Shown here: piece by piece, positions 2,294 to 41,850 of the stretch
How the letters are laid out: each line of letters begins with the position of its first letter
Position numbering within the stretch: position 1 is the stretch's first letter
NCBI GenBank assembly: GCA_012861695.1
Contig: JAAOOA010000060.1
Span: 6,174,683-6,238,682 of the forward strand
Direction of reading: 5' to 3'
DNA: 64,000 nucleotides
Source: Trematomus loennbergii
Taxonomy: Eukaryota > Chordata > Actinopteri > Perciformes > Nototheniidae
Notes under the pieces: generated by a model
Databases searched by the model: none
What the model saw: only the letters and a program-made list of their open reading frames with translations
Told to the model about the DNA's origin: nothing
Position numbers and translations under genes: made by a program

Positions 2294-3361
<1,068 letters not shown>

Positions 3362-16906: not shown

Positions 16907-17617
16907 CCTGACTATGGCTGTGACTGACCCGAGCCTCGTCGTTGTGATAGCTCCGCCCCTTTGCTCCCTCCCCCCTCCCTCCTCCCTCCCCCCCCCCACA
17001 TCTACAGGTGAAAATTACTTTTGCGACACATTCATCGCAAGAAGTGTAGCAAAAGTCAAGGCCGCAGATTCGTCGATTTATACTGCCACAGAGCAGATTC
17101 GTGAAGTTGTAATGACTGATTTGAGAGGTTGTAATAACCAAGTTGCAGTTGTAATGGAAAATATATTTAAAAAATATATATTTTTCTGCAAGTGAACATT
17201 TCATCACTAAGTTCATTTTTTTTCTACAAGCTACAAAACTTTTTTTTCTTCTGTGACTTCAAATGTGGTTCACAGATACGTGGATATGTTATACAAGTGT
17301 AAATGTATGCACACAAGCTCAGATTTATTTTCTGCAAGTGCTCACATCAGGTTTTACACGCTCTCGCATTTTGCACCATATCTACCTTCATATATATCGA
17401 GCCCGATCGTCGATTTCAAATGTGTGCTCTAAAATGATATTTATAAATGACTATTATCATTATTATAAGCAAGACAATAAATGGCAAAGATATGTAGAAA
17501 ATAAACGTATTTAAGATACGTTCCTAACAAACGTAACGTGGGAGAAAATAAGTTTCTAGCTAAACGTAATTGAGAATGCAGTTTAGTTCTGTGGGAACGT
17601 AATTTTTAGGAGACAGG
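16907..17617 (-). repeat. Unassigned dispersed repeat family X, copy 1 (composite)
   Basis: Two portions meet here. The part at 16907-17390 is shared with 32577-33036 (words GATAGCTCCGCCCC and GTGTAGCAAAAGTCAAGG). The part at 17391-17617 is shared with 57581-57804 (words CGAGCCCGATCGTCGATTTC and GTTCTGTGGGAACGTAATTT). On the minus strand the outer edge reads CCTGTCTCCTAAAAATTACG. It abuts the broken DIRS element at 17618. I do not recognise the family; a THAP-like remnant lies next to copy 3, suggesting a DNA transposon. Open frames occur on both strands and are shared by the copies, but near-identity of the copies makes that uninformative. Confidence 0.7.
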
Positions 17618-18360
17618 GTTGCACAAACAGTTGTTCAGTGCGCCTAATGGCAGCCGTGCGCTCTACATAGCATGCTAGTGCACGCACTGGGCAGAGGAGG
17701 TGCAACTTAGCCTCCCTGGCCCCAATATGGGGTGGAAGATTAAAGCAACCTAACTGAATAGCCCTTGATCTGAATGAACTTCTCATACTCTTAGGAGTAA
17801 AGGAGGGGTTCGGCCTGAGTGTCGCCCCGCTATGGTCACCCCGGATCAAAAGACAACTTGGGTGTACCGACAGAGCGGTCAGCTCGGACACCCTTTTGGC
17901 CGAAGTCAAGGCAAGTAGCAATGCTGTCTTCCATGACAGTGCTTTCAGGGAGGAAAGCTCCAGAGCCTCGAGCACCAACGGCAGGTCCCACTGTGGGGCG
18001 GAGGCGTGCACTAATGGGCGCTGCCTCCTGACCCCCTGCAAAAACCGCGTCATAAGCGGCTGACTGAAGGCTGACCTGCCTCCAAATCCCTCATGGCAGG
18101 ACGAAATGGCTGCTGCATACACCTTAATTGTGGAATGAGCCAGCCCCCTGTCCACCAGTATCTGTAAGTAGGTAAGAATAGAGCCCAGCGTGCACGACAG
18201 AGGCTCTAGACTCCTTCCTTCACACCATTGCCGGAATCCCGCCCACTTTGGCCTGTAACAGGCTGTGGTGGATTCTGCTCTTGCTGCTTGGATAGTCTGA
18301 ATAACGTTATCAGACAGCCCCACCTGTCTCAGCCTGTCCCTCTCAGGAGCCAAGCCTGGA
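17618..18360 (-). pseudogene. DIRS tyrosine recombinase, C-terminally truncated
   Basis: The recombinase catalyses integration of the circular DNA form. The minus frame (part of the open stretch 19073-17583) contains LAPERDRLRQVGLSDNVIQ, then the core-binding domain with STTACYRPKWAGFRQWC and the segment TYLQILVDRGLAHSTIKVY. The catalytic domain begins with LLLALTSAKRVSEL, where the arginine in AKRVSEL is the first catalytic arginine. The expected H-x-x-R block and the catalytic tyrosine are missing: homology stops where repeat family X starts at 17618, and the last residues of the open frame come from that repeat. The missing block is seen in a different DIRS remnant at 30863-31075 on the plus strand, from another copy. 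Confidence 0.85.
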
Positions 18361-18399
18361 GAGGTTGGCCCAGAGTGGGTAACGCCCCTATTGCGCCTG

Positions 18400-20059
18400 C
18401 TTCCTGAGACAGCGCTCCCCAGACCTGAGGAATCGCCCAGGGCTGGCCAACCATCATCTGTGTTACCCCCGCGTACCACAGCGCCAGGCGGTGATCTGGG
18501 GCCACCAGGATGATTGACAGCTGTTCCCGCCTCACCCTCTCCAGGAGGGGGGGGGATAAGGTGCAGCGGTGGAAAGGCGTAAAGCAGCTTTCTTGGCCAT
18601 GGCTCGTGTGCAAATGCGTCGACCCCCAAGGGCGGGTTGTCCCACCGAGCCAGGGAGAACCACAGGGCACAGTGGCTGTTGCGCCGATTGGCGAACAGGT
18701 CCACGTCTGCTCTCCCGAACTGAGTCCAGACCTGCTTCACCACCTCCGGGTGAAGCCTCCACTCGTCTGGCAGGGGCCCGCCTCTTGACATGAGGTCGCC
18801 CCCCCTGTTCTCCCGACCCGGGATGTGCAGGGCCCTTAGAGACAACACAATCTGTGAAACCCACAACCACAGGTTCTCTGCTGCGGTCAACAAGGCTATG
18901 GAGCGGACTCCGCCCTGCCTGTTGATGTACGCCACTGTGGTGCGGTTGTCTCTCCTTATTAGCACATGTTTGCCCTGTATTAAGGGTTTGAAGTGCTGTA
19001 GGACCAACATCACTGCTCGCAGCTCCAGGAGGTTGCTGTGCCGCGCCTCTGCCAGAGGCCAGCAACCACCCACAGCTCTCTCTAGGCACTTCCCCCCCCC
19101 ATCCTGTCACTGAAGCGTCTGTGAAGACTGTGATATAGGAGGTCACCTGCCCCAGTGGAGTTCCCCTCCGCAGATTCTCTGGGGATCCCCAGAATTGGAG
19201 GTTGCTCTCTACTGAGGGGGGGGGGATGGTCACCAGACGCCGTTTGTGTCTTTTGAGATCTAAACGAAGGCCGATAAACCACCTCTGCACCCCCAGATAT
19301 TCTACCTGCTGGTGAGGTATGGGGGAGCTCTTCTTCCAATTGATCGCAAAACCTAACTTGGTTAGGTGAAGGATCAACTGGGCTGTGTGAAACATTGCCC
19401 ATTCCCTGGACCTGGCCATGAATATGAGGTCGTCCAGATAAAAGAACATCCTCATGCCATGGTCGCGCAGCGGTTGCAGCGCCGTGGCCACACATTTGCT
19501 GAACGTGCGTGGGGATAGGGAGTAGCCGAACGGCAGTCTGTTTTGGAGCAATTTCATCATGAAAGTAAGCGTCCTTCAGGTCAATGGTTGTAAACCAATC
19601 GCCTGGCTGCATCAGTCCCAGTAACTGTTTCATAGTCAACATATGGAACTTTTTGCATGCAATGTGCCGGTTCAGGCCCCGAAGATCCAGAATGGGCCTG
19701 AATTCTCCTGTTTTCTTGGGAACCAGAAAGTACAGGGAATAGTGCCCCTTGTCTCTGTTTTGAGAGTGCACAACAGACACCGCCTGTTTCTGCAACAGGG
19801 CCTGAACCTCTGCTGAGAGGAAACCTATCTCCTCTTGGGATGACAGATTTGCCTCTCTTATGCCTCTGAATGGAGGAGGGATGCTGCAAAACTGGAGTGA
19901 ATAACCCAGTCTTAGTGTCCTGTCCATCCACTCTGTTAACACACAACTGATTTTCCATTCCCCATAAGATTGTTTTAGGGGATTTGCAATCAGCTGCGGA
20001 GCTACAGCTATGAAGCTGTGATACTCTCTGGTGGCCCACTCCACCGTCAAACCCTCCAT
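18400..20059 (-). pseudogene. DIRS reverse transcriptase and RNase H, frameshifted
   Basis: Copies the element RNA (reverse transcriptase) and removes the RNA strand (RNase H). On minus, the frame from 20059 gives the N-terminal fingers with FLVPKKTGEFRPILDLRGLN and DWFTTIDLKDAYFH (first catalytic aspartate). After a frame change near 19560 a second frame gives LPFGYSLSPRTFSKCV and the catalytic FFYLDDLIFM at about 19419-19453, then VEYLGVQRWFIGLRLDL. RNase H follows with VFTDASVTGWGG. A further frame change leads into MGGCWPLAEARHSNLLELRA and VLIRRDNRTTVAYINRQGG (19073 onward) and ALHIPGRENRGGDLMSR. All expected domain motifs are present but spread over at least three frames, so the copy is inactive. 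Confidence 0.88.
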
Positions 20060-20830
20060 AAAAGGAAGTTTGACCCATGGGGGCTGACACAGAAAGGGCT
20101 GTTTTTTAATAATGCAGTTTTTATCACATGCGCGCGCCCGCTGGCTGCTTCCTGTACTGGAATTACAACTGGGGCGGCGAGGGGGGAATCTGTACAGGCA
20201 TTATAGTGATGCGCAGGATTGTGGAAAGGAATGAATCTCAAACTGGAATATATGCAATTATTTTTATTTACACACACAGATGGATCATACACAGAGGAGG
20301 CAGGATTCATCCTCGCGTCCTGGATGGAGAGAGCCCTCTCGTGGGGCCCTCTGGTACCGCCGCGCAGAACTGGGCGGGTGAGCAGGAGAGGCAGCGGGAG
20401 CTATGGGTGCTCCGGCCTTACGCCTGACTCTCCTCCTCACTGTCGGCCCGCGCTCGCCCCGCTGAGGGAGAGCCAGCGGCAGCATCCGGCTGAGCTGCTC
20501 TCTCTCCTCCTCCAAGCGGCGAAAGCGCTGTGTTACCTACTATTACAGCTGCAGCCGCCACACCGTTAACCAGATTATTAATATGTCCGATGCAGCGGAG
20601 GAGGAAGCGTCAGGCCCACACGCTCCGCTGCCATGGCCATCACCAGCGGGAAATCTTGGCGAACAGATCGGCGTGGTGGACCCTCGTGGCCAGAAACGCC
20701 CGATAGTGAGAAGTCCTCGTCTTCTTCCTCCTCGACAAACGGGGCAGCGCAGGATTTACCTTTATACGTCTGATGATGCCATCTACAGTTTAGGGGCAGG
20801 AGGGCCCCATGGACCCCTACTATTTCAATC
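20060..20830 (-). pseudogene. Probable DIRS gag-like region, degenerate
   Basis: GC-rich DNA immediately upstream (minus sense) of the reverse transcriptase. One minus frame gives an acidic stretch (FVEEEEDEDFSLSG) followed by MAMAAERVGLTLPPPLH, reminiscent of the gag C-terminus of DIRS elements. Several stops interrupt it. The position fits gag; the sequence evidence is weak. The high GC could alternatively be read as a CpG-island-like patch. Confidence 0.4.
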
Positions 20831-34500: not shown

Positions 34501-36152
34501 CAGGAAATACCGTCTTTACAATATGAAGATAAGATACAATAAGAATTTACAGCTGATATTTTCAAATGATACTTGCCCCTTTTTGCTTTGCAGATATTTG
34601 TTGAACAATGTTTTGTGTCTCAGGATCCTCTCAAGGACAGATTTGCTATTCTTTGGTAAAACGGCGCAGGAAAATCGTTTCAATTAGCATTACAGAGATG
34701 TTTTCAGTTCTCTTTGCTATAAAGATGAAGTGGACAACACAAACAACACTCATTATCATCACTGGCATTTTGAGCTCCTTAACTATCCTCTCCTTCTTTT
34801 CCACGGGCTATTTATCTGTGTTTGCTGCCATCTCCCTCAAGATTGAACGTTTGCATTGGAAACGGGGCCACCCTGGCAGCCTGACAAATGAAGGCAATAG
34901 CATGTTTGGAGACACCTCGTTCAACAGTTATTGAAGTTGATAACTTACCATTTGCATATAGATAAGGCATTCTTACCTAGACTAAATCTTTAGCATATAA
35001 AGTAGAATTGCAGTGTTTCTTTTATTTTTCTTCAAGCTAAAATCTACTGACAAAAGCTGGCATACAATTTGAGGGTGGATTGAATCGAAAGTTAGCGCGG
35101 CGGTAGGAATTTACTGAATGCAAAAATGTCAGCGTGCCACTTGAGGATGTAATTACAAATGACAAACACTTATTAGGCTTTAAAGAGGACGCAAACATTG
35201 AGAATTTTCTCTGTTTGGAAATACAATATCTGTGCAATTACCTCGTCAGGCTGAATTCAACCCATAAATACTACTGTTCCAAGCTGAGTCATGCATGAAT
35301 CATTTAATAAAGCTATAAGCGCACGCAGAAGAATAATCCGTTCACATGCTGAAAGGAACTCAATGAACATCTGAATATTAGCCACCTTTCTGAGAGCTTC
35401 AGTGGCCGACTGTACTATATTTAGCTAAATGTGTGTTTGTGTTTGGTGCTGGTTGAGCTTTTTTCTCCGATCGTCTTGAAACGGAAACTGCCCTCCAAAT
35501 CAAAATACTGAATCAGAGGGGGTTAGCAGGGATAAGGAGCTCATCAGACACTTCAGGGATAAGCCTGGTTAATACCCTGTGAACTAAACATCACACTGTT
35601 AATGCAGTATGCCATTTTAACAGCTGGTAGGGATAAGGAAATTGCCACCCAAGTGAAACTGTCAAAAACATTTAAACTGCATGTACTTTCATCAGAAATA
35701 CAGCTTGTCCTGAATGTGCTGTATAGCTTAAACCATTTTATGTAAAAAAAAAAATCTTTGACGAATAATGCAGTGAATACATTAATGCTATTATGAGGAT
35801 TATACTGGAAAATCAAATTGCATCCATGAATGTTGAATCTTATTAAAAAGGTCATTGTCATTATTCATTGTAAGACAAGTGCAGTACTCCCTTACACACT
35901 GCCTGGTTATAGATGGCTTACTACAATTTCACAGGATTTTGATCCTCAAAAATGACTAAAATACAAAAATCTATGGTAATATTTTCTGTCTTTACAGCAT
36001 CTAGTGTATAAGCAGGTAAAAGCCTTTTGGATTCAGTGAATGGTTGGAATATTTGTTGACCAACATCGTTATTTTTGACAGTTTCTGTCTCTGAAAATCT
36101 TTCTCTTACAGGTAGTTAAGTTGAATTCCCCAGCAGTATAAGTCAATTATTT
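34501..36152. other. No gene recognised
   Basis: The 108-codon plus frame at 34608-34934 has a hydrophobic stretch but no recognisable family or splice context. Nothing else could be supported. Confidence 0.45.
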
Positions 36153-36330
36153 GAAGAGGCCCTATTATGCTCAGTTTCAGATTAATATTTGTATTTTGTG
36201 CCTCTACTGTGTCTCGATGCTTTAATGTTCAAAAAGCTATTTTCTCATATGTGCTGCAGCGGGGGTTGTGGGAGACAAACTCCCTCTGGAGGCAACTTTG
36301 GGATTTTAGCCTTTACAGAACATTTACCAT
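36153..36330 (+). repeat. Miniature element fragment (ATTATGC family), copy 3
   Basis: Starts GAAGAGGCCCTATTATGCTC and ends with GGGAGACAAACTCCCTCTGG, AACTTTGGGATTTTAGCC. Diverged internally from the other copies. Confidence 0.6.
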
Positions 36331-37734
36331 TTTTAACTGAGACATTAGACCTATTTCTGTAAACCTACTGGCTATTAGAAAGAACGCAGATTAAAGGCAC
36401 TTCTTAGACCAGACTTTGAGTTTTCACCAACTACTCAAAAATGTGTTATTTACCAGCTAGTTGCTAGCTAGCTTTTGGACTGGGAGTGCGTGCAAAGTGG
36501 TTTTAGACTGAACCAAAACAGTAAAGTTCTGGGCCATTTAACAATCTGGGCCAAAGGCTATATATTTTGGAGATAATTTTCAGTCGGTTCTTCACTATGA
36601 GTGACCCCTTACAAATGATTGATTCATTATTAACATGAACGTATTGAATAGTGTATTTTTGCAGGGATTACTGATTGTGTTGGTTGAGTTAAATATCCCT
36701 ATTATCTTCTTCTCTTTTTGGCTGAACTCAGGTACAGATTGCCTCAATTGTCTAAGCCTGCACAGTAATCACATTTTTTACATTTACTAAATTCTACTTT
36801 ATGCTGACATAACCTAATTCAATAAATAAATATAACAATAACAAAGGCAACAGTAAGTTCCAGGCTAGAGGTGACTACTTTAAAAAGCCTTAGAAAAACG
36901 TTGTAAAATATCAAGGGCTAAAGAGACAATGTTGTTTTGTCCTATCAAGATGTCATACAGAAAAGTACAAGTAAACATTTCTGCTCACTGGTGGGAGAGA
37001 TTTTCTCTGATTTAGCTGTCAGGAATAGTTCCAACACAAGCCCTCGACATCTTATCCGTGATTTCAGCTGTAACCAGGGCTTTTGAAATTGGAAAAAACA
37101 TCAAAAGATCGACTAGTTTTGCAAGTTACCACCCACTCTCAATTCCCCCCTGCTGAACATTTTCTTGAAAAAACATTACAGTGATTATTAGTCACTGCAG
37201 CCACTAAAGCACATTCACTTGGGAAATATGTGTTTGCCTAAATGTAGATTATAATATCATAAATCTATAAGATTACTGAGTATCACACGTATTTGTTTAT
37301 TTGAAAGCAAGCGATTTATGATATACAGCTGCTGACTTCTAGAACTGTGATAAGTAACATTTTGTTTTTAGACTTCTCTGTTTCAGTGTGCTCTGTTCAA
37401 ATGTTCTGTAGTTCATCTGATTAAAATTGTGATTTTAATCTCAAAACAGCTAAAGTATTTTCAGGCAGAAATTTGGGACATTTATTTTTACAGAAACCTT
37501 AAAACTGAACTAACTGGTTGTTAGGGTTAACTTTGATTTAAACATTTGTTGAATACTAAGGGCTTTATTAACTAGGGGTAACTGTATTAAGGGTTAACCT
37601 CATAACTTTATTAGCTAGGGTTTAATGTAATTGTAAACTACTAAAAAGTTTAATTACGAACTCAGGAGTGATCCAGTTTAAATTACCTATTGCTGCAGAG
37701 AGTTAACTAATTAAAGGGGCGTGGACCCACAGCT
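36331..37734. other. No gene recognised
   Basis: AT-rich DNA; repeated GGGTTAAC-like words at 37520-37620. No gene, terminal repeat or RNA gene supported. Confidence 0.45.
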
Positions 37735-38079
37735 GTGACAACTCAATCAGGACTGGTGTCCATTTTAGGCAGCACTTTCCTGGAGCGTCAGACAGACGAA
37801 GACAATAGAGTCCTGTTGGAGTCACGAGGGAGGCAAAGAGGAGGCAAATCCTACTTTAACTGTGCTAAGCATCTCTGGTGTTTTCTGTCCCCTCTTGCTA
37901 AGACATGTGTGTATTCTCTATTCCTGTTCATGTGTCCTCTCGCAATTTTTACTGGCCCCGTGCATCTCGTAATCGTTGTAACCAGCCTGCTCTCATCTAT
38001 CCCACATGCTCCACTGTGATCCAACATCTAGTTACAGGTGGCCTGTGGAACTGCCAGTCAGCTGTTCCTGGCTGACTTC

Positions 38080-38115
38080 GGCCCAATCCCAAACCACTCC
38101 CTCGACCCTACCCCT
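38080..38115 (+). repeat. Harbinger terminal inverted repeat, left
   Basis: Starts GGCCCAATCCCAAACCACTC, then CCTCGACCCTACCCCT. Matches the right end with one inserted C. Confidence 0.95.
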
Positions 38116-38187
38116 CCGTGGCGGAGTGAACTCCGTCTGGAGCCACACTCGCAGCTGAATGAAGTTCCCTCCATTAAGGGTTAAGGG

Positions 38188-38195
38188 TATAAATA
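38188..38195 (+). promoter_or_regulatory. TATA box of the Harbinger transposase gene
   Basis: TATAAATA lies 65 bases upstream of the proposed ATG at 38253 and about 70 bases inside the left inverted repeat. Spacing fits a transcription start near 38220. Confidence 0.6.
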
Positions 38196-38252
38196 CAGCG
38201 CTCCGCTTTGGGACGGCCTCCCCTCTCTCCGCAGGAAACTGAAACGGACGTC

Positions 38253-39850
38253 ATGGTGTCCAACCCACATCTCTCGGCTGCATTGACCTGCGTTGCTATC
38301 CGTCGCCTGTTAGAGGGTGCAAGGGCACGATCCGACAGAAGGCGCAGAAGGTTGAGGCGCATTTTAGCGAGGTGCCAGTGGCAGGTAAACATTTCAATAT
38401 TGCTAATACAACAATTCTCTTAACTTTATTTCTTATATAGTATTAACTTTGTATGTGTAATACAAATAGATATTTTTGATATATTTTGATATACATTCAT
38501 TTATTGTTTCTTTCCTTATAAGCTATACGTATATTATATATCAATATAGTGTCTGTAGAATTCCAACACAGAGAAATATTGTCAGTAGTTTATATAATAC
38601 AAAAGGAAAGGCTAATTTCACTCAAACACAAAAATAGTAAATCCAGAGAAACCTATATCTATCTATCTATCTATGTGTGTGTGTGTATTTTATATATAAA
38701 ATACATTGTATACAGTTTATATAGGGTGTGTATTACAAACATTTCATGTTTATAGTATTTTAACAATACTGTGTCCTGTGTTTGTCTTTTACAGGGGCGC
38801 AAAGGTCTTTACATGCAGCTCAATGCTACTGCCCCAATTCTCGCCTTGTATGCCAACCCTGAAGCCTGTCTAAAGAAGGACTTTAGAGTTAAGCGCTCTA
38901 GTGTGGCTTATTTAGTGCAGATGCTTTCCTCCCCAAAGGACCACGGATGGGGACAAGACATCGAGGTGCTTGTTCTCCTCTACAGCTTGGCCCATGGACT
39001 ATCGCTCTCTGTGGTGAGTTCAGCATTCGGGATTCCCAAATCGACGGTCCACAGGATCATCAGACACGTCAGCGGGAAGATAAAGGCCAACCTGAAGACC
39101 CTCATTTCCCTGCCAACCGCAGATGAGCTTCCAGCGATTGCAGGCGGCTTCTGTCAGCTTGCCAATAGTCCTGCATTTCACCATGCTGCTGGTGCGATTG
39201 ATGGATGCCATATACGCATCAAACCTCCAGGAAACGAGTACCACAAAGACTACATCAACTACAAGCTGTTTCCTTCCATCCAGATGCAGGCCATCTGTGA
39301 CTCAACTGGGAGATTCCTGGATGTTTTCATCGGCTATCCAGGCTCCGTTCATGATGCCAGAGTACTTCGCAACAGCCCCATCTTCAGCCAGGCACTGTTT
39401 CCCCCAGCTGGTTGGTTCCTCCTTGGGGACGGTGGTTATCCCTGCCTGGAAAAACCAGTAGCATTACTCACACCCTACAAGGTCCCTCGCGGACAGGTGC
39501 GGGCAAGATTCAACGCTCATCATGCCAGGGCTCGGTCTGTGGTGGAAAGAGCATTTGGAAGGATGAAGACTCGCTGGAGGGCCACCTTTTTCAAAGCGCT
39601 GGAGGTCAGTCCAAGCTTTGCCCCTGACATCATTGCATGTTGTGCATTTCTGCACAATCTGTGCATCAACATGAACGATGTCCTTGAGGACGCTGAAGCC
39701 TTCCCCCCTGAAGATCAGGACCAGAATCCTCCCCCTGCCGCAGCAGGTGGACAGGAAAGTCCTGGACACCACATAAGGGACAGGATTGCTGCCCAACTGT
39801 CTGCTCCTGTCCAAATGGCACCACACCTGAGAGAGCACGACTACATTTAA
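38253..39850 (+). CDS. Harbinger DDE transposase (two exons)
   Basis: Cuts and joins the element ends. My model joins exon 1 (38253-38384, donor CAG|GTAAAC) to exon 2 (38795-39850, acceptor TTTTACAG|GGG), giving about 395 residues without a stop; HARBI1-type proteins are about 350-400. Exon 1 encodes an arginine-rich segment (ARARSDRRRRRLRRILARC). Exon 2 has a helix-turn-helix-like part (VVSSAFGIPKSTVHRIIRHV). The DDE domain follows: AGAIDGCHIRI (D about 180), GYPGSVHDARVLRNSP (D about 231), LLGDGGYPCLEKP (D about 256) and SVVERAFGRMKTRW (E about 295). All acidic residues expected for the family are present. The ATG at 38253 is preferred because an open frame starting further upstream would need a non-ATG start, and one starting at 38771 would begin inside the intron. 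A poly(A) signal AATAAA is at 39993-39998. Intron 1 holds a short microsatellite. The gene converges with the Myb-like gene. It appears intact. Confidence 0.93.
38654..38687 (+). repeat. (TATC)n(GT)n microsatellite in transposase intron
   Basis: Four to five ATCT units followed by five GT units, inside the intron at 38385-38794. Confidence 0.9.
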
Positions 39851-39992
39851 TGTACTTTGTTTTTTTGTGTTTTCTTTTGGCAAAACGTGGTTGTCTGGTA
39901 ACTTGTGTTTTTGTATTATTATGTGCACACATACCTGATTTCATTTGTGTTTGTTAGCGAGCTCCACTTCTCACTTTAGAGAAAAGAGGTGA

Positions 39993-39998
39993 AATAAA
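39993..39998 (+). terminator. Poly(A) signal, transposase gene
   Basis: AATAAA 143 bases after the stop codon on the plus strand. Confidence 0.55.
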
Positions 39999-40494
39999 AC
40001 AAACCTGTGCAACGTTGATTTCAAACTTGGTTTTCCTCAATTGTCTTTCTGCATAATCCCAAATTGGAGACAAATGTCCTTACCTCTTGGATCATCAATC
40101 ACATTATAGGTGCACAGAACAAAGGTTCACAAAATGAACACAGGTCTTCCAATACAATCACTTTTGTTTTTGAGTGCAACTCTGCAAATGGTTTGACATG
40201 AGCAATTAATGCCGTAAATGGCATGTATATTTTAATCCCTTATGCTTATACCTATGAAGCGCACACGCATCTTTATTTAAAATGCTGATATGCAGGGTTA
40301 ATCTTCAGATTGTGAAAAAAACACTTGTTCCGTGCACAACATTACTTTGTGCAAAAGTTTTCCTTCTACATTATCAAACCCACACAGAACAATGTAAGTA
40401 ACAATCACGCAAAAGCAATGTCACTGATCACCCGTCTACCTGTATTTACTATATACCCATACAATATTCAAGACATGGAGTACGTTAAATTAGG

Positions 40495-40500
40495 TTTATT
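40495..40500 (-). terminator. Poly(A) signal, Myb-like gene
   Basis: AATAAA on the minus strand (TTTATT on plus), 117 bases after the stop codon of the Myb-like gene. Confidence 0.5.
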
Positions 40501-40616
40501 GTCTTCCAAATAAATTATACAAGCGAACAAAAACAACTCTTTACAAGTAAATCAATATCAACATAAAAATGGCCAATGGTGGGGGGAAAAAAAATCACAT
40601 TTTGTCGACCATTTTT

Positions 40617-41644
40617 TCAAACAGGTTGAGAAATTTCTCTGAGTGCTGCATTATTTCTGTGGCGTTCGTCCTCTTTTTCTGCCTCGCTTTCTAGGCACTC
40701 CAGCACTTTTCCTCTTTTTTGGGGGGGGCTGGTGGTTCCAGCCTCAGACGGTGATGAGGGTGGTGAGGGGCCTGGATCATCAGCCACATTGAGGGGGTGG
40801 GGAAGAGGAGCAGGAAGCAACCTCGTATCAAATCGGATTGTGGGGTTTGCCAAGGCTGAGGCAACAAGGACAGGAGGACTAATTGAAGGCCTTGCACCTA
40901 TGGCCTCATCCATGGCCATGAAGAAGGGCCATGTTGCAGGGGTTTCTTCCCCCTGATCAGTCCCTGCTCCAGTCCTTTGCCTTTTAAGTCCCTATTGCAA
41001 ACAAACGCATGTTAGAAATCTTTGTTCAGCTTTTTTAAAAACAAACAAATGTTTTACATTAACAATAAACCATTTACCTTGTATTTTTTCTTTAGGTTCT
41101 CCCATTTCTTGGAGGCCTGTTTGTGAGACACATGTTGCCCAAGGTCCAGTTCCTTAATGATTGACCTGTTATCATAGCATATTTCAACAATATATATTGG
41201 TGTTAAGTCAATGACCCAAAGTGCACATTCATTACTTTCATTGCACAAAATATGAATTGAGTGCATAATATAACTCACTCCCATGCTTCTTTGGCAGCAT
41301 TCGTTTTTTGCAGAACTGGTTGTCCTTGTCCATCCTTAATAATAAGTGCCTTGGTTTTTACCACAGTCCCTGAAATTACAAATCACACTTAAGTTTAAAC
41401 CGATTTTGTAAGTGAATGGATGTGAGATACATGAATTGACACATGTGTTGTTAGTTTGATTCCGATTTATATTTGTACATCTTCAAAATAAAAATCGAAT
41501 GTAATCTTGCCAAATGAAATTAACACGTGTAGAGTTCAAAATACATGTTTCACAAAGGCATGTTTTAGTTAAGGCAACGTATTAATTCTCGTTTAAAAAC
41601 GTAACCACATGGAACTCACATTTGTATGACGTTGTTTCCTCCAT
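40617..41644 (-). CDS. Harbinger Myb/SANT-like DNA-binding protein (four exons)
   Basis: Second gene of the element. In studied Harbingers it binds subterminal DNA and escorts the transposase to the nucleus (family knowledge). Splice model on minus: exon 1 41644-41620 (donor AAAT|GTGAGT), exon 2 41369-41279 (acceptor TTTCAG|GG, donor GGGA|GTGAGT), exon 3 41165-41078 (acceptor AACAG|GTC, donor CAAG|GTAAAT), exon 4 40991-40617 (acceptor AATAG|GGA). Phases fit at every junction and give about 192 residues. Residues 1-68 form a SANT/Myb-like trihelix: MEETTSYKW, KTNAAKEAWESIIKEL, then HKQASKKWENLKKKYK. A proline/serine-rich linker and an acidic tail (LECLESEAEKEDERH) follow. The tail ends LREISQPV; an adjacent frame reads SEKFLNLFEKMVDKM before its own stop, which looks more like the usual end of such proteins, so a one-base indel near 40650-40690 is possible. 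Confidence 0.88.
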
Positions 41645-41715
41645 ACCCGAAAACTGTTGCACATCTGTGGAGTGAGACTATCGAGCTTGCATCCATGCAA
41701 ACTCGCTGTCGGAGG

Positions 41716-41723
41716 CTTTTATA
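41716..41723 (-). promoter_or_regulatory. TATA box of the Harbinger Myb-like gene
   Basis: TATAAAAG on the minus strand, 72 bases upstream of the ATG at 41644 and about 90 bases inside the right inverted repeat. Confidence 0.6.
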
Positions 41724-41812
41724 ACCCACTACCCCTCCCCTCTGATTGCTTTGGAACAGCCCTCAATGTGGCGGACCCTCCGCGTGAACGCGCAAACGGA
41801 GGGGTAGTGTGT

Positions 41813-41847
41813 AGGGGTAGGGTCGAGGAGTGGTTTGGGATTGGGCC
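41813..41847 (-). repeat. Harbinger terminal inverted repeat, right
   Basis: Reverse complement starts GGCCCAATCCCAAACCACTC, then CTCGACCCTACCCCT. Confidence 0.95.
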
Positions 41848-41850
41848 TTC

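What the first reader, a model, noticed from the sequence alone, without database searches (positions are those of the whole stretch)
38080..41847. Apparently complete, possibly autonomous Harbinger transposon with both genes readable
Seen: near-identical inverted ends, a 3-bp duplication, a two-exon transposase without stops carrying all expected acidic residues, and a four-exon Myb/SANT-like gene whose four exons join in phase. Each gene has a TATA box just inside its end and a poly(A) signal. Every other element in the window is broken or non-coding. Known: Harbinger elements need both proteins to move. Inferred: recently active and perhaps still able to move, which is uncommon in vertebrate genomes.
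Basis: partly seen in the sequence, partly recalled or inferred. Interest (0 to 1): 0.82.

Follow-up and report, generated by a model that had tools for sequence, protein, structure and literature searches.

The report
Young two-gene Harbinger jumping gene
This is a recently inserted Harbinger DNA transposon in a fish genome with an unbroken transposase gene, but its second (helper) gene is not intact as assembled, and errors in the genome assembly may be to blame, so it is an ordinary new member of a known kind and not a demonstrated self-sufficient element.

Summary
The element at 38080-41847 is real: matching ~36-bp inverted ends, a TTC target duplication proven by uninterrupted LINE relatives, an open 395-aa two-exon DDE transposase (D180, D256, E295) and a convergent Myb/SANT-like gene with GT-AG introns. 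It is a PIF/Harbinger transposon; its nearest protein relatives are from notothenioid fishes. Its own genome holds seven other near-full-length copies at 0.7-1.7% substitution (two share flanks) and 0.5-0.7-kb derivatives, so recent activity is supported. The claim that both genes are readable is not: the Myb exons join in phase only because small deletions nearly cancel. Against relatives and sister copies the frame is wrong in part of the DNA-binding domain, in the linker and at the conserved C-terminus. Of 12 copies aligned (some partial), none has both genes open in the family's frame. But the assembly itself carries many deletion-type errors: 16 of 16 clustered protocadherin exons, and 9 of 9 further ones including two on the window's contig, show frameshifts with few in-frame stops. 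The Myb frameshifts may therefore be artefacts; autonomy stays undecided until raw reads are checked. New member of a known kind.

The parts
38077..38079 (.). target site duplication, left copy (TTC)
   Evidence: single copy in LINE relatives L030-L032
38080..38115 (+). left terminal inverted repeat
38188..38193 (+). TATA-like motif before the transposase gene
   Evidence: motif only
38253..38384 (+). transposase exon 1 (ATG at 38253)
   Evidence: N-terminus matched by P0017
38795..39850 (+). transposase exon 2: HTH-like region, DDE nuclease (D180, D256, E295), stop at 39848-39850
39993..39998 (+). AATAAA after the transposase gene
   Evidence: motif only
40495..40500 (-). AATAAA (minus strand) after the Myb-like gene
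   Evidence: motif only
40617..40991 (-). Myb-like gene exon 4; deletions relative to most sister copies near 40655, 40701 (11 nt), 40796 and 40824, and a variable homopolymer near 40726; conserved C-terminus out of frame
41078..41165 (-). Myb-like gene exon 3 (in frame, matches relatives)
41279..41369 (-). Myb-like gene exon 2; deletions near 41300 and 41340 put about 12 codons of the Myb/SANT-like domain out of frame
41620..41644 (-). Myb-like gene exon 1 (MEETTSYK...)
41718..41723 (-). TATA-like motif before the Myb-like gene
   Evidence: motif only
41813..41847 (-). right terminal inverted repeat
41848..41850 (.). target site duplication, right copy (TTC)

Best explanation
A PIF/Harbinger cut-and-paste DNA transposon that inserted recently into an older LINE in a fish genome (a notothenioid or close relative, inferred from its protein relatives). 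Shown: ends, TSD, empty sites, open DDE transposase, close copies, short derivatives. Inferred from the family: the Myb/SANT-like protein binds the ends and brings the transposase to the nucleus, and the transposase cuts at the TIRs and reinserts with a 3-bp duplication. The copy as assembled has a good transposase gene and a Myb-like gene broken by small deletions; many of these are probably assembly errors, so the true state of the Myb gene, and therefore autonomy, is open. If the deletions are real, this copy could move only with Myb protein supplied by another copy.
For: TIR/TSD/ORFs; DDE_Tnp_4 and Myb_DNA-bind_4; nearest relatives from Notothenioidei (lineage of two species): transposase P0017 91%, Myb P0001-P0009 66-81% in the multiple alignment; empty LINE sites; 12 copies aligned, 0.3-2.1% pairwise substitution except L010 at 3.1-5.4%; L003 with an empty paralogous site; Myb frameshifts. 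Assembly error: 16 of 16 clustered protocadherin exons frame-shifted, 106 shifts in 35.9 kb (86 deletions; 23 of the 106 recur at the exon end and are probably alignment artefacts) with 2 in-frame stops in 11,804 codons; 9 of 9 further protocadherin exons, two of them on the window's contig C60, with 43 shifts and 6 in-frame stops in 7,726 codons; a locus pair with shared flanks (L005/L007) with 16 mismatches but 37 gap openings in 6.9 kb.
Against: No RNA, reads or second individual were available. The deletion density in this copy's Myb exons (6 in 579 nt, 7 with the homopolymer near 40726) is above the calibration (about 2.3-3 per kb) and includes an 11-nt deletion, which leans towards some being real. 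Two annotated relatives, P0007 and P0008, also end in a tail like the window's out-of-frame one, so such frames recur in annotated copies. No solved structure matched the predicted transposase fold at E <= 0.001, so the fold adds nothing beyond sequence.
Confidence: 0.85

Rival explanations
1. The Myb-like gene of this copy is truly decayed: the element is a non-self-sufficient copy with a good transposase gene, mobilised (if at all) by Myb protein from elsewhere.
For: The 2-nt deletion near 41340 is in none of the 11 other aligned copies; the 11-nt deletion near 40701 is filled in 9 of 10 that cover it, the tenth (L010) being changed differently. In the list 11 deletions lie at 40093-41823 (three of those outside the Myb exons with a majority of only 4-5 copies), while the rest of the element outside the 38653 microsatellite has none. 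The conserved C-terminus is lost.
Against: The deletions are many for so few substitutions (10 private; 17 against the majority). The transposase frames of the 12 aligned copies hold 28 frameshifts, all deletions, with no in-frame stop in 4,296 codons, which looks like sequencing error, and host exons show a similar pattern. L014 shares the deletions near 40655 and 41300 and L007 that near 40824, which would fit recurrent error at the same motifs as well as shared ancestry.
Confidence: 0.35
2. The element is complete and autonomous, with the Myb frame really intact in the animal.
For: Transposase open in this copy and in L003 and L009; young family; error-prone assembly.
Against: As read, the Myb protein departs from its family in several patches; no copy of 12 (some partial) has both genes open in the family's frame.
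Confidence: 0.3
3. A host gene domesticated from a Harbinger transposase.
For: Only that the transposase frame is intact.
Against: Matching TIRs and TSD, near-identical dispersed copies, and 12 replacement to 6 silent differences among nine copies, which shows no strong constraint.
Confidence: 0.02

Closest known systems
PIF/Harbinger transposons of teleost fish (Etchegaray et al. 2022, PMC9179366; abstract, introduction and passages seen)
   Same: Two genes (DDE transposase and Myb/SANT-like), TIRs of 25-50 bp, 3-bp TSD
   Different: Among the 120 listed of 587 matches named species outside Notothenioidei reach at most 67% transposase identity (P0027, 66% coverage); the Myb gene of this copy is frame-shifted as assembled
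Proteins annotated 'putative nuclease HARBI1' (P0017) and LOC117537996 (P0002) of Gymnodraco acuticeps, and Myb/SANT-like proteins of Pagothenia borchgrevinki (P0001, P0003)
   Same: Transposase 91% identical over 100% of the length; Myb relatives align across the exon junctions
   Different: P0001-P0006 and P0011 (7 of the 15 relatives aligned) end in a tail like FEKMVDKM, which the window's frame lacks; P0007 and P0008 lack it too, and the others are truncated or diverged
Ping/Pong with mPing (rice) and the reconstructed Harbinger3_DR (zebrafish), from PMC2836001 (passages seen)
   Same: Two genes, short derivatives sharing the ends, 3-bp TSD, target preference that extends beyond the TSD
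   Different: No activity shown here; zebrafish Harbinger3_DR sequences were not compared

Membership tests
PIF/Harbinger | DDE transposase of the DDE_Tnp_4 type with three acidic residues | tested here: met
   PF13359 E 2.7e-34; D180, D256, E295 present (which residues form the triad is recalled)
PIF/Harbinger | second gene with Myb/SANT-like trihelix domain | tested here: met
   PF13837 43.4 bits, cut-off 27; relatives P0002, P0004, P0006 score 52-53, P0001, P0003, P0011 score 35-42
PIF/Harbinger | terminal inverted repeats of about 25-50 bp | tested here: met
   36/35 bp with one gap
PIF/Harbinger | 3-bp target site duplication | tested here: met
   TTC proven by empty sites; 10 of 19 TIR-to-TIR spans have identical 3-bp flanks, two pairs of these sharing flanks
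PIF/Harbinger | insertion preference beyond the TSD | tested here: met
   A at -5 in 32 of 41 and AC at -5,-4 in 18 of 41 distinct end flanks, background 0.062, p 9e-12; pattern chosen after looking, four duplicate flanks dropped
autonomous Harbinger | both proteins intact in one copy | tested here: inconclusive
   Transposase yes; Myb frame-shifted as assembled; assembly error likely in part
autonomous Harbinger | transposition when both proteins are present | not testable with these tools
   needs an excision assay
ISL2EU | second gene is a YqaJ exonuclease | tested here: not met
   second gene is Myb/SANT-like; no YqaJ family among the Pfam matches of the two proteins
Spy | usually a single transposase gene (passage in PMC9179366) and no TSD (title of a paper in its reference list) | tested here: not met
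   two genes and a 3-bp TSD

The most novel reading that the evidence does not exclude
A naturally intact, still mobile vertebrate Harbinger system in a notothenioid-type fish: transposase from copies like this one, Myb protein whose frame is hidden by assembly errors, and short derivatives moved in trans.
Probability: 0.3. Interest if true: 0.5.

Novelty: new member of a known kind. Interest (0 to 1): 0.32.

Why it matters
A young two-gene Harbinger family with open transposases, near-identical copies and short derivatives would be a natural vertebrate system for studying two-protein transposition; the vertebrate element in the passages seen (PMC2836001) was a reconstructed one. The more general lesson is methodological: in this assembly, frame breaks say little about real decay, and an open spliced frame says little about an intact protein unless it is compared with relatives.

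Tried and rejected
Structure search of the modelled transposase exon 2 (mean pLDDT 87.7) against solved structures gave nothing at E <= 0.001; the weak top rows (retroviral intasomes, Mos1) were not used. A PDB sequence search gave only two rows at E 0.12 and 0.19, neither used. Whole-window Rfam (gathering) and tRNA scans were empty. A second allele of the window locus was sought with the left flank: among the 40 of 2,087 candidates scored, only the window itself covered 35500-37290; the rest were LINE copies. The right flank and the flanks of L004 and L002 were asked but not answered. The count of private indels by bins is unreliable for gaps, because truncated copies count as gaps; only its substitution counts are used. 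A first control, that protocadherin exons outside the cluster are open (L051 914 aa, L052 907 aa), was dropped as biased: they were the two longest frames, and nine others fetched later all carry frameshifts. So the errors are not confined to repeats. Papers: searches for PIF-Harbinger or Harbinger with notothenioid terms listed 2 and 3 papers, none about this family by title and abstract start; this is not a claim that it is unpublished. Polypolish (PMC8812927; start of abstract in the listing) says long-read-only bacterial assemblies keep residual errors and that short-read polishing is unreliable in repeats; how this assembly was made is not known here.

Full report
What is there. The window holds one element with inverted ends at 38080-38115 and 41813-41847 and a TTC duplication. 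The 21-base end sequence occurs nowhere else in the window even with three mismatches. The element sits inside an older LINE. Three LINE relatives elsewhere in the same genome, L030, L031 and L032 (94, 90 and 89% identical), read straight through the site with a single TTC. This proves the insertion and its 3-bp duplication; it does not date it.

Transposase. Joining 38253-38384 with 38795-39850 gives 395 codons without a stop, matching DDE_Tnp_4 at 2.7e-34. The best relative, P0017 from Gymnodraco acuticeps (suborder Notothenioidei), is 91% identical over the full length. The acidic residues are D180, D256 and E295. Four residues differ from those shared by at least 80% of 55 relatives: V76, S108, R134 and F246. 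None is catalytic; S108 and R134 lie in the HTH-like stretch, do not vary among the nine copies compared, and close relatives depart there too. Exon 2 is modelled with mean pLDDT 87.7, but no solved structure matched significantly.

Myb-like gene. Compared with relatives the protein is wrong in several patches. A frame-aware alignment finds 5, 5, 5 and 7 frameshifts against P0002, P0003, P0004 and P0006, 6 against P0001 and 3 against the partial P0005. Shifts at 41303 (exon 2), 40826 and 40658 (exon 4) recur against every relative that covers them, and that at 41340 against the four that reach it; a further shift in exon 4 is placed at 40791 or 40803 depending on the relative. The first pair restores the frame and so does the second, which is why the exons appear to join in phase; the last one removes the C-terminus, whose tail is also present in the distant relative P0011 from Gouania willdenowi. 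P0003 and P0006 are themselves irregular gene models, and P0007 and P0008 end in a tail like the window's. The same method gives no frameshift in the transposase against P0017, P0018 and P0019.

The family in its genome. The window lies in a 1.2-Gb genome, G000, where a search that scored only 40 of 1,803 candidates returned further long copies and short derivatives. Twelve copies were aligned (L001-L007, L009-L012, L014; L008 is the same locus as L014, and short derivatives, the diverged L013 and fragments were left out; L010, L011, L012 and L014 are partial or rearranged). Substitution distance from the window copy is 0.73-1.67% except L010 at 5.08%; L002, L003 and L004 differ from each other by 0.32-0.39%. 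The transposase is open over its full length in 3 of 12 (L001, L003, L009), and no copy of 12 has both genes open in the family's frame. At the sites of the window copy's Myb deletions the other copies carry the bases in 11 of 11 (41340), 10 of 11 (41300, not L014), 9 of 10 (40824, not L007), 9 of 10 (40701; L010 changed differently) and 9 of 10 (40655, not L014); 40796 and 40726 vary among copies. L003 sits in a tandem array in which another unit, L054, with a 99% identical left flank, has the empty site. Ten of the 14 derivative loci fetched (L015-L028) show both ends and span 487-722 bp; they share about 160 bp of the left end, while the right end, where matched, is 69-81% identical. Flanks of 41 distinct element ends favour A at -5 and C at -4 (the pattern was noticed before it was counted, and ends without a clean TSD are included).

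How far the frames can be trusted. L005 and L007 share their flanks (a haplotig pair or a duplication) and differ over 6.9 kb by 16 mismatches but 37 gap openings. Across the 12 copies the transposase shows 28 frameshifts, all deletions, and no in-frame stop in 4,296 codons; the Myb gene shows 44 frameshifts, 40 of them deletions, and 2 stops in 2,255 codons. As a yardstick, protocadherin genes, which have long single exons (recalled), were examined. 16 of 16 clustered exons on C12 have frameshifts against the open exon L033: 106 in 35.9 kb, 86 of them deletions, with 2 in-frame stops in 11,804 codons; 23 of the 106 lie at positions 723-740 and are probably exon-end artefacts. The 16 were picked from the upper part of a table of 150 matches. 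Nine exons elsewhere, two of them on C60, the window's own contig, have 2-11 shifts each, 43 in all, and 6 stops in 7,726 codons, again with some at the ends. L051 and L052, open for 914 and 907 aa, were the two longest frames and are no fair sample. Many deletion frameshifts with few stops are what uncorrected long-read errors look like (inference). They could also explain part of the 'broken' state of other repeats in the window. Against a purely artefactual reading, this copy's Myb exons have 6-7 deletions in 579 nt, above that yardstick, one of them 11 nt long, while its transposase has none.

Mechanism. From the literature, both proteins are needed, the Myb-like protein binds the TIRs and brings the transposase into the nucleus, and the transposase cuts (PMC2836001, passages; PMC9179366, abstract, introduction and passages). 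That this holds here is inference from anatomy. Recent transposition of the family is supported by the empty paralogue of L003 and by close copies; present activity and autonomy of this copy are not shown.

Verdict. A new member of a well-known kind. Its youth and open transposase deserve a note; the claim of two readable genes does not stand as read and can be settled with raw reads.

Noticed in passing
G000 assembly, e.g. L034-L049, L056-L064 and L005/L007: Deletion-type frameshifts are frequent in host protocadherin exons too (16 of 16 clustered, 9 of 9 others), so frame-based pseudogene calls in this assembly are unreliable.
   Followed up: yes
L015-L028 (short derivatives on many contigs): Non-autonomous derivatives of about 0.5-0.7 kb share the element's ends; their inner sequence did not match the element.
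   Followed up: partly
L002, transposase residue 295: One sister copy carries D in place of the catalytic E.
   Followed up: no
C172:403991-506479: Tandem array of units 96-99% identical to the flank of L003; L054 and L055 have the empty site.
   Followed up: partly
G000: C435:71992, C248:322914, C412:266571, C399:34589031, C14:5732029: Other Harbinger loci at 53-55% protein identity have open frames of 364-405 aa.
   Followed up: no
window 17583-20200 (-): Overlapping long frames that look like a DIRS-type retroelement (recognised from recall, not searched), split by frame changes.
   Followed up: no
window 2852-2961: Perfect AC repeat of 55 copies.
   Followed up: no
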